Source: Anaerolineae bacterium
Lineage (GTDB): Bacteria > Chloroflexota > Anaerolineae > Caldilineales > Caldilineaceae
NCBI GenBank assembly: GCA_030432295.1
Contig: JAUIHI010000030.1
Coordinates: forward strand, 1 to 64,000
Direction: 5' to 3'
Length of the DNA: 64,000 nt
The position numbers and the translations under genes are program-made. This document shows positions 8,325-34,265 of this stretch, one piece after another (the first letter of the stretch is position 1; every line of letters begins with the position of its first letter). The notes under the pieces are model-generated. The model was not told where the DNA came from. It made no database searches and was given only the letters and a program-made list of their open reading frames with translations.

Positions 8325-9755
8325 CTACGGATAAATCCCCCGCAGTTTGGTCGCTTCCACAATGCGCTGGATGGCGATGGTATAGGCCGCCGAGCGCAGA
8401 TCCACGCCCTTGCGCACGGCCACGCCCGTCAGCTCGTCCAGATTTGTCAGCAACTTGCGCTCCATCTGGCGGCGGATTTCGCTCTCGTCCCAGAAGAAGG
8501 CCTGCAAATCCTGCACCCACTCAAAGTAGCTGACCACCACACCGCCCGCGTTGCAGAGGATGTCGGGGATGACCATCACGCCCTTTTCGTCGAGAATGCG
8601 GTCAGCCTCTGGCGAGGTGGGGCCGTTGGCTCCCTCTGCGATCACCCGGGCCTGGATTTTGTCTGCGTTCTGGGCGGTGATCTGCCCTTCCATCGCGGCG
8701 GGGACCAGTACATCCACATTCAGTTCCAGCAACTCCTCATTCGTTAGCGTGTCCGAGCCGGGATAGCCCACGACTGTGCCATTTTCCGCAGCAAAAGCCT
8801 TCAGGTGGCGGGGGTCAAAGCCTCTGGATCTGTAGATGCCGCCCATCACATCGCTGACCGCCACGACGGTCGCGCCCCGCTCGTGCATTGTGCGGGCTGT
8901 CCAACTGCCCACATTGCCAAAGCCCTGGATAGCGACTGTCACATCTTCGATATTCTGGCCTAGTTTGCGCTTGAGCAGGGCACGGGTTGTATAGGTAACG
9001 CCCAGGCCAGTGGCGTACTCCCGCCCGACTGTGCCGCCCACGCCGATGGGCTTGCCTGTGACCACCGCGGGCACAGAATAGCCTTTGTGCATGGAATAGG
9101 TGTCCATCATCCAGGCCATTATCTGGGCATTCGTGCCCACATCCGGCGCGGGGATGTCCTTTTCCGGGCCGATGAAGGGGCCAATCTCCGTGGCATAGCG
9201 TCGGGTCATGCCCCGCAGTTCCCGTTGGGAGAGCAGTTTGGGGTCCACAATCACCCCGCCTTTGGCCCCGCCGTAGGGCAGATTCATCAGCGCGCACTTC
9301 CACGTCATCCACATAGCCAGTGCCCGACATTCGTCCAGTGTCACGTCCTGGTGATAGCGGATACCACCTTTGGTGGGGCCGAGTGTGGTGTTGTGCTGGA
9401 CACGAAAACCGGTAAACATACGGATGCTTTCGTCGTCCATCATCACCGGAAAGTGGACGATCAACTCCCGCTGGGGAACCCGCAACAGTTCCAGCATATC
9501 GTTTTCCAGGTGCATAGATTCGGCCACCCGGTCCAACTGGGCCTGGGCCACCGCATAGGCGCTGACACTGGGGACCGAGGTTTCCCGCTGGCTGGTGGCA
9601 TTGGCGGAAGCACGGGGCGGCTGTGCGCCCGATGGGAGGCTGGGGTTTTGGTCGCGTTCGTTCTCTTCCACCGCGGGCAGGGATGCACCATTCGGTGGGG
9701 ATGCGGACACGCTTGCCAGCGCGGCGTCTTTGGCTGCTGTCTGGTTTTTCGCCAT
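8325..9755 (-). CDS. Glu/Leu/Phe/Val dehydrogenase (glutamate dehydrogenase type)
   Basis: NAD(P)-dependent amino-acid dehydrogenase of 476 residues catalysing reversible oxidative deamination, most likely glutamate to 2-oxoglutarate. The active-site motif PYGGAKGGV carries the catalytic lysine near residue 165. Substrate-loop motifs [10 protein letters not shown] and FTGFRVQHN and the nucleotide-binding [11 protein letters not shown] are intact. I start at ATG 9753-9755, with AGGAG 8 bases upstream, not 14 codons earlier. The first 65 residues are Ala/Ser/Pro-rich and not part of the usual fold, an uncommon N-terminal extension. It is monocistronic with its own promoter. Confidence 0.93.
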
Positions 9756-9813
9756 TGAAAAACTCCTGATGGTATTTGGATTGCACGGTGCCGACACGAA
9801 TGTGGCTGTACAC

Positions 9814-9878: not shown

Positions 9879-9912
9879 AGAAGTTCGACTTTTTCCGAAA
9901 AGTCGAACTTCT
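9879..9912. repeat. 34-bp palindrome AGAAGTTCGACTTTT, copy 1
   Basis: A perfect 15-bp inverted repeat (9879-9893, 9898-9912) with loop TCCG. An identical 34-base copy lies at 34232-34265. It lies in the divergent region between the dehydrogenase and the small acidic gene, upstream of both promoters, so it is not an obvious terminator here. Confidence 0.85.
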
Positions 9913-9940: not shown

Positions 9941-9968
9941 TTGACCTGAAGCGGATATATGATATACT
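9941..9968 (+). promoter_or_regulatory. Promoter of the small acidic Cys4 protein gene
   Basis: TTGACC (9941-9946) and TATACT (9963-9968) are spaced by 16 bases. The predicted transcript start near 9975 leaves about 110 bases of leader before the ATG at 10085. I saw no convincing riboswitch fold in that leader. Confidence 0.7.
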
Positions 9969-10084
9969 TTCGGTTGTGTCTTCATACCGACTGTTGATTC
10001 GGTGAGAGACAGTTGCTCTGCCTGGTTTTCTCAGTACAGGCAATCTGCCGTCACCAATCAGCCCAGGCAAAATAGGAGAGTTGC

Positions 10085-10372
10085 ATGACGCGGGTGCGTT
10101 GTCCTCAAGACCGTTGTATCTTTTGGATGAATGGGTGGTGCGACATCGACGAGATTGAGCTGGCGCCAGTGACGCTGGCCTGTATCACCTTTGAGGAGAT
10201 GGATACGGAAGTCGCGCCGGTAGTCGGCGAAAATGATCTGGAGTGGGACGATGACGAGTCCCTGTTTGAAGAGGATTTAGACGAGAGCCTTTACGGCTAC
10301 GACGATGGCGACGACGAGGATGAGGACGACGAACTCCTCGCCGACGACGAAGACGACGACTGGTCCAGCTAA
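10085..10372 (+). CDS. Small protein with four cysteines and a long acidic tail
   Basis: A 95-residue protein I do not recognise. The first 33 residues hold four cysteines in the pattern CX4CX7CX13C (C6, C11, C19, C33), which could bind zinc or an iron-sulfur cluster. From about residue 39 it becomes extremely acidic, finishing in runs of Asp and Glu. A ribosome site (AGGAGA) lies just before the ATG, a near-consensus promoter upstream, and a hairpin terminator at 10387-10433, so it is probably a real, well-expressed single gene. The acidic tail could mimic nucleic acid or bind cations; this is speculation. Confidence 0.75.
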   Translation: MTRVRCPQDRCIFWMNGWCDIDEIELAPVTLACITFEEMDTEVAPVVGENDLEWDDDESLFEEDLDESLYGYDDGDDEDEDDELLADDEDDDWSS

Positions 10373-10386
10373 ACAGCCGAATAGAC

Positions 10387-10434
10387 GAGCGCCGTTAACA
10401 GGCTGCGGCCTGTGACGGCGCTCTTTTCTTTTTT
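10387..10434 (+). terminator. Intrinsic terminator after the acidic protein gene
   Basis: GAGCGCCGT (10387-10395) pairs with ACGGCGCTC (10415-10423), with an inner AACAGG/CCTGT pairing, followed by a T-rich tract with TTTT and TTTTTT runs. Confidence 0.85.
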
Positions 10435-10460: not shown

Positions 10461-12317
10461 ATGGGGCAAATGCTGACACCAGCGGACAGCAGCGGGAATC
10501 ACACAGGGGTCAATTCCGGGGCCGACTCCGGACCAATACCTGAATGGATTGCCAATGATCCGCTTCACAACGGATGGGTGGACGAAAAGGTGGACGATTC
10601 CCCCGCTGTGGCGGGCCAGAAGCGGGAGACCGTCCAGGTGCGCTTCGGCGAACGCTACTACGCGGCTCCCCTGGGTACACCCATTCTGGAGTTTGTCTGG
10701 GCCGCGGTGGTGGACGATCCCCCCGGCTCCCCGCCGATGGCTGTGCTGCTGGACAACCGGCTGCGGGAACTCTCGACGCCGGTCTGGGAAGATGCTAGCG
10801 CGGAGATCGTGCCGATGAGCGACCCGGACGGCGGGCGTATCTACCGCCGTTCCCTGACGCTGCTGCTTCTGGCCGCGGCCAAGCGCATCTTTCCTCAGAT
10901 GGCGATTGCCATCGAACACAGCCTCCCCTTTGGCGCATACTACTGCACTGTTGTTGGGCGGGACCCCCTCAGCCTGGCCGAGTTGGACCTGTTGGAGGCG
11001 GAGATGGAAAAGCTGGTGGAGGCCGATATGCCCATCACCTGTCGCCGGGCCTCGGTGGATGAGATGGTCGCCTTTTTTGCAGCCAGCGGCGACGAGTCGA
11101 AAGTCTCCCTGCTTGCCCACCGCACCTCCGAGGACCTGGCCGTCTACACCCTGGACCAACTGCAAAACTACTTTCACGGCTATATGGTCCCCAGCACGGG
11201 CTATCTGCGCTGGTTTGGCCTGGCCGTCTATGGCAAGGGCTTTCTGTTGCGCTTTCCCCGTCGCCAGCAGCCCAACGAACTCCAGCCGATTCTGCCCAGC
11301 ACTGCGTTGGAACATGTATTTCAGGAATACGGCGAGTGGATGGGCCGGATGGGGTTGCAGAATCTCGGTTCCCTCAACGATGCGATTGTGCGGGGCAATA
11401 TCTCCGAAGTAATTCTGATCAGCGAAGCCCTGCACGAGCGGCGCATCGCCCACATTTCTGGGCTGGTTGCCAAAACCTGGGAAGACACCAACGCGGCCTA
11501 TCGGCGCATCCGGGTGGTGCTGATTGCGGGTCCCAGCAGCAGCGGCAAGACGACCTTTGCCAAGCGGCTGGGCGTTCAACTGCTCTCCCACGGCATCCGC
11601 CCCTATGCCCTCTCCCTGGACAACTACTTTGTCAATCGCGCCCAGACCCCGCTGGACGAGGTGGGCAACTACGACTTCGAGTCCATCGCCGCGCTCAATT
11701 TGCCCCTGCTCAACGAACATTTGGCTCGCCTGTTGGCCGGGGAAGAAGTCACAATGCCCCACTTTAACTTTGTGACAGGGGAGAGTGAAGTGGGCGAAAC
11801 CGTGCGCCTGGAGCCAAATCAGGTGTTGATTCTGGAAGGCATTCACGGGCTGAACCCGGCATTGACGACGGCTATTCCGCCGGAGTCTACCCTGCGGGTC
11901 TACGTCAGCGTCCTCACCCATCTGAATATGGACCGGCACAACCGCATCTCCACCGCGGATGTGCGGCTGTTGCGGCGGATCGCCCGGGATTTCAGCACGC
12001 GTGGCTACAGCGCCGCCGATACGATTGGTCGATGGGCCAGTGTGCGCCGGGGCGAAGAGCAGTACATTTTCCCCTTTCAGGACAACGCGGATGTGATGTT
12101 CAATTCGGCGCTTCTCTACGAACTCTCGGTCCTGCGCGATCTGGTGGAGCCGCTGCTTCTGCGCATCGAGTGGGACACGCCTGCCTATGTGGAGGCCCGC
12201 CGTCTGCTGGCCTTTCTGCGCTGGGTGCGCACAGCCGATGCCGATCTGGTCCCCGACAATTCCCTCATCCGGGAGTTTATCGGCAATTCAATTCTGCGCA
12301 CATTCAGTCTGGTGTGA
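10461..12317 (+). CDS. Uridine kinase-like nucleoside kinase with N-terminal TGS/ThrRS-editing-like region
   Basis: A 618-residue cytoplasmic kinase of the phosphoribulokinase/uridine kinase family. The kinase domain fills roughly residues 350-560, with Walker A AGPSSSGKTT near residue 355, SLDNYFVNR with the catalytic-type Asp, and LEGIHGLNP. The N-terminal 300 residues resemble the TGS and second additional domains of threonyl-tRNA synthetase, with the fold around EHSLPFGAYYC where the synthetase has its metal-binding HH motif. This architecture is known in large 'nucleoside kinase' proteins of several phyla. The expected reaction is ATP-dependent phosphorylation of a nucleoside; the substrate is not proven. 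The ribosome site before ATG 10461 is weak. Confidence 0.85.
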   Translation: MGQMLTPADSSGNHTGVNSGADSGPIPEWIANDPLHNGWVDEKVDDSPAVAGQKRETVQVRFGERYYAAPLGTPILEFVWAAVVDDPPGSPPMAVLLDNRLRELSTPVWEDASAEIVPMSDPDGGRIYRRSLTLLLLAAAKRIFPQMAIAIEHSLPFGAYYCTVVGRDPLSLAELDLLEAEMEKLVEADMPITCRRASVDEMVAFFAASGDESKVSLLAHRTSEDLAVYTLDQLQNYFHGYMVPSTGYLRWFGLAVYGKGFLLRFPRRQQPNELQPILPSTALEHVFQEYGEWMGRMGLQNLGSLNDAIVRGNISEVILISEALHERRIAHISGLVAKTWEDTNAAYRRIRVVLIAGPSSSGKTTFAKRLGVQLLSHGIRPYALSLDNYFVNRAQTPLDEVGNYDFESIAALNLPLLNEHLARLLAGEEVTMPHFNFVTGESEVGETVRLEPNQVLILEGIHGLNPALTTAIPPESTLRVYVSVLTHLNMDRHNRISTADVRLLRRIARDFSTRGYSAADTIGRWASVRRGEEQYIFPFQDNADVMFNSALLYELSVLRDLVEPLLLRIEWDTPAYVEARRLLAFLRWVRTADADLVPDNSLIREFIGNSILRTFSLV

Positions 12318-34231: not shown

Positions 34232-34265
34232 AGAAGTTCGACTTTTTCCGAAAAGTCGAACTTCT
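34232..34265. repeat. 34-bp palindrome AGAAGTTCGACTTTT, copy 2
   Basis: Identical over 34 bases to 9879-9912. Here it is followed by TTTTGTTT and lies just after the ABC operon, so in this place it can work as an intrinsic terminator. Confidence 0.85.

What the first reader, a model, noticed from the sequence alone, without database searches (positions are those of the whole stretch)
10085..10372. Small Cys4 protein with very acidic tail under a strong promoter
A compact CX4CX7CX13C head and an Asp/Glu-rich tail are an unusual pairing. The gene has a clear promoter, ribosome site and terminator, so it should be abundant. It might be a metal-binding adaptor or a nucleic-acid mimic.
Basis: partly seen in the sequence, partly recalled or inferred. 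Interest (0 to 1): 0.5.

Follow-up and report, generated by a model that had tools for sequence, protein, structure and literature searches.

The report
Anaerolineae cysteine protein with acidic tail
A small bacterial protein with four fixed cysteines and a long, negatively charged tail dotted with tryptophans is a real, conserved, single-copy gene found in many lineages of the class Anaerolineae, driven here by an unusually well-kept promoter, and its function is not known.

Summary
In detail: a 95-aa gene at 10085-10372 with CX4CX7CX13C, 32 Asp/Glu and no Lys/Arg in the 62 residues after C33, promoter, ribosome site and terminator. It is no orphan. One copy is found in 117 of 298 genomes of the class (one hit weak); of 400 genomes across the phylum 36 hit, all of this class. 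Cys spacing is fixed (4, 7, 11-13) in 129 of 131 distinct proteins; all 129 tails carry Trp, none Cys, and 102 have an aromatic in the last five residues (50 expected). Promoter hexamers, TGn and 16-nt spacer match in 25 of 25 Caldilineaceae copies. The head is DUF1540-like: the window protein scores below Pfam's cut-off, one relative above. Elsewhere in the class the gene lies beside at least one of MoeA, MobB, VKOR, DsbA, RelA or an amidohydrolase in 84 of 111 loci, yet depends on neither MoeA nor VKOR. Best reading: a metal-knuckle head with a disordered acidic-aromatic docking tail, possibly a nucleic-acid mimic working like YacG. Metal, partner and expression are untested.

The parts
9941..9968 (+). 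sigma-70-type promoter TTGACC-16 nt-TATACT with TG one base before the -10
   Evidence: same hexamers (last base of the -35 C or G), TG and spacer in 25 of 25 Caldilineaceae copies; 5 exact pattern matches in the own genome, 0 for the reversed control
9975..10084 (+). 5' untranslated leader, about 110 nt (start of transcription inferred from the -10)
   Evidence: sequence; poorly conserved within the genus apart from the ribosome site and a few columns
10074..10078 (+). ribosome-binding site AGGAG, 6 nt before ATG
   Evidence: identical in 6 of 6 genus members
10085..10372 (+). 95-aa protein gene (stop codon included): Cys4 head plus acidic tail
   Evidence: single-copy family of the class
10085..10195 (+). 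Cys4 head, residues 1-37 (CX4CX7CX13C followed by ITFE)
   Evidence: C6, C11, C19, C33 invariant in 38 of 38 aligned members; DUF1540-like
10196..10369 (+). acidic tail, residues 38-95 (the counts take the tail from residue 34); W54 conserved class-wide, D66-E67 and W93 in the closer relatives
10387..10434 (+). intrinsic terminator: hairpin 10387-10423 and T-rich run
   Evidence: z -6.2; hairpins at the same place in 5 of 5 genus relatives, with weaker or no T run

Best explanation
The gene encodes a small cytosolic protein of a family spread through the class Anaerolineae. The N-terminal ~36 residues form a compact knuckle around one metal ion (most likely Zn2+) held by the four invariant cysteines. 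The remaining 28-81 residues are a disordered polyanion punctuated by Trp/Phe/Leu/Tyr and usually with an aromatic near its end, which docks on a basic, hydrophobic-pocketed surface of a conserved partner. The head gives specificity and the tail competes with nucleic acid or another anionic ligand, in the way YacG uses a zinc finger plus C-terminal tail on gyrase. SHOWN here: family, fixed Cys spacing, tail pattern, purifying selection, promoter conservation, gene neighbours. INFERRED: metal binding, cytosolic place, disorder, docking, nucleic-acid competition. The partner is unknown.
For: C6, C11, C19, C33 are the only residues invariant in 38 diverse members. Spacing 4/7/11-13 in 129 of 131 distinct proteins and no Cys in any of 129 tails, so the four Cys act as one set. 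Tails: median 57% Asp/Glu, at least one Trp in 129 of 129, aromatic in the last five residues in 102 of 129 (shuffled mean 50, max 65 in 500 shuffles); one member per family 20 of 29 (shuffled mean 11.2, sd 2.5, max 20 in 2000) and Trp flanked by acids in 27 of 29. One match per genome in all positives. No signal peptide is apparent by eye: most of the 38 starts read M-x-[RK]-[IV]-x-C. The protein is kept by selection behind a strictly conserved promoter. YacG as mechanistic precedent: PMC10886550, passages on YacG.
Against: No partner, no structure, no metal data. AlphaFold2 gives no confident fold for the whole protein (pLDDT 60.5, pTM 0.25) or for the head alone without alignment (61.0). 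No PDB sequence matches the profile at E up to 10. Neighbours are cofactor, disulfide and stringent-response enzymes, not topoisomerases or polymerases, which gives no support to a nucleic-acid target. Related sequences are not independent; with one member per family the aromatic-tip excess equals the highest of 2000 shuffles. Extreme acidity alone could serve solubility or metal buffering.
Confidence: 0.4

Rival explanations
1. A thiol-redox protein: the four Cys are a redox switch or disulfide relay substrate linked to VKOR/DsbA oxidative folding, and the acidic tail keeps it soluble or docks it to a partner.
For: VKOR lies on the same strand upstream in 40 of 111 non-Caldilineaceae loci (39 within 400 nt), DsbA-like thioredoxin in 25; VKOR in 10 and DsbA in 7 of 29 families. 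In the 38-locus set the gap from VKOR to the gene is -11 to 22 nt in 8 of the 9 loci with VKOR as called neighbour, 76 nt in the ninth. VKOR matches (E up to 0.001) occur in 81 of 117 positive and 83 of 181 negative genomes; all four matches below Pfam's cut-off appear to fall among the positives, leaving 77 of 117.
Against: 36 of 117 positive genomes have no VKOR match, among them 10 of the 13 positive Caldilineaceae of the draw (only the own genome, G017 and, weakly, G013 match). No signal peptide is apparent, whereas VKOR/DsbA act outside the cytosol (recalled). The VKOR excess is not corrected for relatedness.
Confidence: 0.17
2. A metal or cofactor delivery protein for molybdenum cofactor maturation: the Cys4 head carries a metal or sulfur, the tail docks on MoeA/MobB.
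For: MoeA upstream on the same strand in 54 and MobB in 17 of 111 loci (62 with either); 16 and 7 of 29 families; MobB ends 18-33 nt before the gene in 5 of 6 loci of the first set, 90 nt in the sixth.
Against: No co-dependence: MoeA_N is found in 105 of 117 positive and 161 of 181 negative genomes (read from the tables), and six positive genomes at 95% completeness or more show none (G028, G194, G255, G266, G284, G308; drafts, so a gap is possible). In the 31 Caldilineaceae loci none of MoeA, MobB, VKOR or DsbA is near.
Confidence: 0.1
3. A plain DUF1540-type protein whose tail is only a solubility or metal-buffering appendage without a specific partner.
For: DUF1540-like head (24 of 24 members at E up to 10; 26 of 38 at E up to 0.01); tail length varies 28-81 aa.
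Against: Tail has conserved W54, D66-E67, W93 in the closer relatives, tail dN 0.07-0.17 against much higher dS and an aromatic tip above shuffled tails.
Confidence: 0.2
4. Spurious or decaying ORF with accidental features.
For: None beyond its small size.
Against: 117 of 298 genomes, dN/dS 0.03-0.09, promoter conservation.
Confidence: 0.01

Closest known systems
DUF1540 (Pfam PF07561), e.g. Clostridioides difficile CdeA
   Same: Four conserved Cys as signature. All 24 members of A1 match at E up to 10, best 2.3e-6; 26 of 38 of A2 at E up to 0.01, best 3e-7; of 10 relatives scanned, L116 is over the curated cut-off (23.7 vs 22.1 bits). No function assigned to the domain (PMC7677010, one passage read).
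   Different: The window protein itself scores 13.4 bits, below the cut-off, and the profile does not list this gene in the own genome at E up to 10 (the same search rings in 7 of 14 control genomes, over the cut-off in 2, so weak hits alone say little). Here the domain is N-terminal and followed by an acidic-aromatic tail, in Chloroflexota; CdeA is an exosporium Cys-rich protein (PMC7677010, passage).
YacG (PF03884), endogenous gyrase inhibitor of Proteobacteria
   Same: Works-like candidate: small zinc finger that inserts a Trp into GyrB plus a C-terminal region that leads to blocking of the DNA site (PMC10886550, passages).
   Different: No YacG match in 60 genomes of the class including the own genome; different Cys spacing (YacG motif recalled, not from a call).
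SSB-type acidic C-terminal tips, RNA polymerase delta subunit, acidic-aromatic activation domains (all recalled, no call)
   Same: Disordered polyanion with aromatic or hydrophobic residues that docks on basic or hydrophobic pockets and can compete with nucleic acid.
   Different: The head here is a Cys4 knuckle; resemblance of composition only, not tested.

Membership tests
DUF1540 (PF07561) | Four conserved Cys | tested here: met
   Invariant in 38 of 38; the weak Pfam match of the window protein covers profile positions 1-24 of 40 only
DUF1540 (PF07561) | Score over Pfam's curated cut-off (22.1 bits), window protein | tested here: not met
   13.4 bits, E 0.083; no place in the own genome over the cut-off
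DUF1540 (PF07561) | Score over the cut-off, relatives of the same family | tested here: inconclusive
   of 10 relatives scanned 1 is over it (L116, 23.7), 3 just below (20.8-21.5), 6 show no match at E up to 0.001
YacG (PF03884) | Match to the YacG profile | tested here: not met
   0 of 60 genomes of the class incl. own; the control rings in E. coli and Caulobacter
YacG (works-like) | Binds GyrB and blocks DNA binding | not testable with these tools
   needs protein
Zinc-binding Cys4 protein | Binds one Zn2+ through four Cys | not testable with these tools
   Cys conservation only; AlphaFold2 poor
Moco-pathway protein | Co-occurs with MoeA | tested here: not met
   105/117 positives vs 161/181 negatives have MoeA_N (tables)
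VKOR-system protein | Co-occurs with VKOR | tested here: inconclusive
   81/117 positives vs 83/181 negatives, not corrected for relatedness; 36 positives lack a VKOR match

The most novel reading that the evidence does not exclude
Anaerolineae evolved their own class-specific nucleic-acid-mimic regulator, convergent with YacG: a Cys4 knuckle that carries a polyanionic, Trp-studded tail into the DNA or RNA channel of an essential machine (gyrase or RNA polymerase), kept single-copy and, in Caldilineaceae, under an invariant strong promoter.
Probability: 0.14. Interest if true: 0.75.

Novelty: new variant of a known kind. Interest (0 to 1): 0.45.

Why it matters
A conserved, single-copy protein of a large environmental class, often linked to the same few enzymes, has no assigned function, and the only related domain found (DUF1540) is itself uncharacterised (PMC7677010, one passage). 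If the tail docks on a core machine, this would be a new house regulator of Chloroflexota and a handle on DUF1540 in general. The recurrent neighbours (MoeA, MobB, VKOR, DsbA, RelA, amidohydrolase-CYTH) and the conserved tail residues make it directly testable.

Tried and rejected
Rejected: orphan or chance ORF. Rejected as main reading: mobile or phage cargo (no plasmid match of the window protein at E up to 0.01; no relative in viral contigs by the A1 patterns; one copy per genome with recurrent neighbours). Rejected: membership in YacG. Rejected: obligate Moco partner. Rejected: a specific regulon promoter; the 4 other exact matches in the genome precede unrelated ORFs (by eye: a secreted-looking protein, a CcmE-like protein, an ABC permease, a P450-like protein; not searched) and no RNA gene was found in those four stretches.

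Led nowhere: NCBIfam for the window protein (no family); PDB sequence search with A1 (none); AlphaFold2 on the whole protein with 26 sequences and on the head alone without alignment, both too poor for a fold search, so none was run; Rfam on the gene region gave only matches below the gathering score, at the terminator hairpin, at the palindrome and inside the gene; the single-protein scan of genome contigs found nothing, the alignment scan 25 loci. Comparing A1 with A2 shares sequences and proves nothing. PHROGs and PADLOC were not searched. Literature: DUF1540 is in 5 papers held (listing), passages read in two (the second describes DUF1540 in Firmicutes as having one membrane segment, cydX-like, which does not fit these proteins); five papers on CdeA or exosporium seen as listing only; 17 papers with YacG and gyrase seen as listing, passages read in one. 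No paper held has VKOR with Anaerolineae, acidic tail with zinc and Anaerolineae, or the four terms acidic C-terminal tail, aromatic, SSB, DNA mimic; the 8 papers shown of 1,030 with two of DUF1540, Chloroflexi, Anaerolineae, Caldilinea contain no DUF1540.

Rows dropped before counts: A1 holds 24 of the 27 hits (L019, L021 and L027 left out; L021's gene returns as L113). G060's hit carries stops and is not the family gene; a better place was found. Of 143 loci, 6 had no recognisable ATG start pattern and the other 137 gave 131 distinct proteins; 2 more lack the Cys pattern (L148, L212), leaving 129. Of 104 non-Caldilineaceae positives, 103 were fetched (G227, E 0.009, was not), plus 8 of the 14 further positives, giving the 111 loci; many are cut by contig ends and reach only 3.5 kb, so neighbour counts are lower bounds. 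The MoeA label in L170 comes from my own cluster profile while MoeA_N finds nothing in that genome.

Full report
OBSERVATION. The ORF 10085-10372 (+) is there as described: 95 aa, C6-X4-C11-X7-C19-X13-C33, then 62 residues with 32 Asp/Glu and no Lys/Arg. The promoter is TTGACC-16-TATACT with TG before the -10 (9941-9968), the ribosome site is AGGAG (10074-10078), and the gene ends in a strong hairpin with a T-rich run (10387-10434; z = -6.2). Neighbours in the window: glutamate dehydrogenase, divergent (8328-9797, -), and a 618-aa protein of the phosphoribulokinase/uridine kinase family downstream (10461-12317, +).

IT IS A FAMILY. The protein finds matches at E up to 0.1 in 27 of 61 genomes (own included; the weakest, in G060, is not the family gene). 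A profile of 24 members (A1) finds it in 116 of 298 genomes of the class at E up to 0.001 and a broader profile (A2, 38 members) in 117 of 298 at E up to 0.01 (one of them weak, E 0.009), one place per genome. In a draw of 400 genomes of the phylum 36 are positive, all of the same class. The 25 named relatives are MAGs, most titled Caldilineaceae or Litorilinea, one each titled Chloroflexi, Anaerolineae and plain bacterium; that the class is Anaerolineae rests on these titles and on recalled GTDB taxonomy. Other phyla were not searched with the profiles beyond the pattern scan. There is no match on plasmids and no relative in viral contigs by the patterns tried. The gene can be lost: 7 of 20 genomes of the window's family in the class draw lack it.

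ANATOMY. In 38 diverse members only the four Cys are invariant. Among 131 distinct proteins 129 keep Cys spacing 4/7/12 (89), 4/7/13 (37) or 4/7/11 (3). The 129 tails (after the fourth Cys) are 28-81 aa long, median 57% acidic, with no Cys; every tail has at least one Trp, and 102 of 129 have an aromatic in the last five residues, against 50 (sd 5, max 65) in shuffled tails. With one member per family the numbers are 20 of 29 against 11.2 (sd 2.5; the maximum of 2000 shuffles also reached 20), and acid-flanked Trp in 27 of 29. The tail therefore has a pattern, not just charge. Within the genus both parts are under purifying selection (dN/dS 0.03-0.09 overall; head dN 0.000-0.034, tail dN 0.07-0.17); dS is near saturation in several pairs, so the ratios are rough.

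REGULATION. Aligned upstream regions of six genus members diverge except for TTGAC, TATGRTATACT, AGGAG and a few scattered columns. A best-promoter scan of 250 nt upstream, free to choose among spacers of 16-18 nt, finds the same architecture (TTGAC[CG], 16 nt, TGn, TATACT) in all 25 Caldilineaceae copies (aligned); shuffled upstream regions reach the same score in 3 of 24, so the evidence is the identity across copies, not the single score. The exact pattern occurs 5 times in the genome and 0 times in the reversed control. The other four sites precede unrelated protein genes, and no RNA gene was found there, so it looks like a strong housekeeping promoter kept intact rather than a regulon. 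Expression was not measured.

CONTEXT. The 111 non-Caldilineaceae unnamed loci show, on the same strand upstream, MoeA in 54, VKOR in 40 (39 within 400 nt), DsbA-like thioredoxin in 25, RelA/SpoT in 21 and MobB in 17; downstream on the same strand, an amidohydrolase with a C-terminal CYTH-like domain in 28. 84 of 111 have at least one of these. By family: MoeA 16, VKOR 10, amidohydrolase 8, MobB 7, DsbA 7, RelA 4 of 29. Identities were confirmed by Pfam on representatives; the labels elsewhere come from my own cluster profiles. In the 38-locus set gaps to VKOR are -11 to 22 nt in 8 of 9 and to MobB 18-33 nt in 5 of 6, so the gene is probably cotranscribed there. Two other families of the set have their own neighbours (a 7TM-HD hydrolase downstream, 11 of 11 loci of f39; a D-Ala-D-Ala-ligase-like protein upstream, 7 of 8 of f32). 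In Caldilineaceae the gene stands behind its own promoter, with the uridine-kinase-family gene downstream in 14 of 31 loci (11 of 26 genomes after removing doubles). None of the neighbours is required: MoeA_N is found in 105 of 117 positives and 161 of 181 negatives, and 36 of 117 positives have no VKOR match.

RELATION TO KNOWN FAMILIES. The head resembles DUF1540: all 24 members of A1 match at E up to 10 (best 2.3e-6), 26 of 38 of A2 at E up to 0.01 (best 3e-7); of ten relatives scanned L116 is over the curated cut-off, three are just under it and six show no match at E up to 0.001, and the window protein is below it (13.4 vs 22.1). The profile run on the own genome does not list this gene and rings in 7 of 14 control genomes, over the cut-off in 2. 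I therefore call it DUF1540-like and do not file the window protein as a formal member. DUF1540 has no assigned function (PMC7677010, one passage). No PDB sequence matches. AlphaFold2 gave no usable model. YacG is absent from the class sample (0 of 60).

MECHANISM. The most economical reading is a metal knuckle plus a disordered acidic-aromatic docking tail, working like YacG on gyrase (zinc finger with an inserted Trp, and a C-terminal region that leads to a blocked DNA site; PMC10886550, passages). What is shown is conservation, pattern and linkage; metal, disorder, partner and competition with nucleic acid are inferred. The thiol-redox and cofactor-delivery rivals have gene-neighbour support but fail as obligate links.

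VERDICT. A real, conserved, uncharacterised family: a new variant of a known domain of unknown function. Interesting because it is widespread in its class, single-copy and testable, not because any mechanism has been demonstrated.

Noticed in passing
window 9880-9911 and 34233-34264: A palindrome of about 32 bp (GAAGTTCGACTTTT, short variable loop, AAAAGTCGAACTTC) has 71 exact copies in the genome (0 for the reversed control) and 1-85 copies in 6 other genomes of the genus: a REP-like or bidirectional-hairpin element whose loop varies while the stem is kept. It is absent upstream of the gene in 5 relatives.
   Followed up: partly
L054, upstream of its copy of the gene: A different palindrome (GTAGGGCGGAATATCATTCCGCCCTAC) sits in the same intergenic stretch, as if the place attracts palindromic elements.
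   Followed up: no
L118:6422-8401 and 27 other loci: Amidohydrolase with a C-terminal CYTH-like domain (Pfam on one representative), encoded downstream of the gene in 28 of 111 loci and 8 of 29 families; the fusion may be worth its own look.
   Followed up: no
window 10461-12317: 618-aa protein with a PRK/uridine-kinase domain at 353-549 and about 340 N-terminal residues without a Pfam match at E up to 0.001.
   Followed up: no
L148 (G063): The copy in this single-contig genome lacks the fourth Cys and runs out of the family's frame after about residue 31: a frameshift, decay or sequencing error.
   Followed up: no
window's family f1, for example genus g16: 7 of 20 genomes of the family in the class draw lack the gene, so it can be lost.
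   Followed up: no
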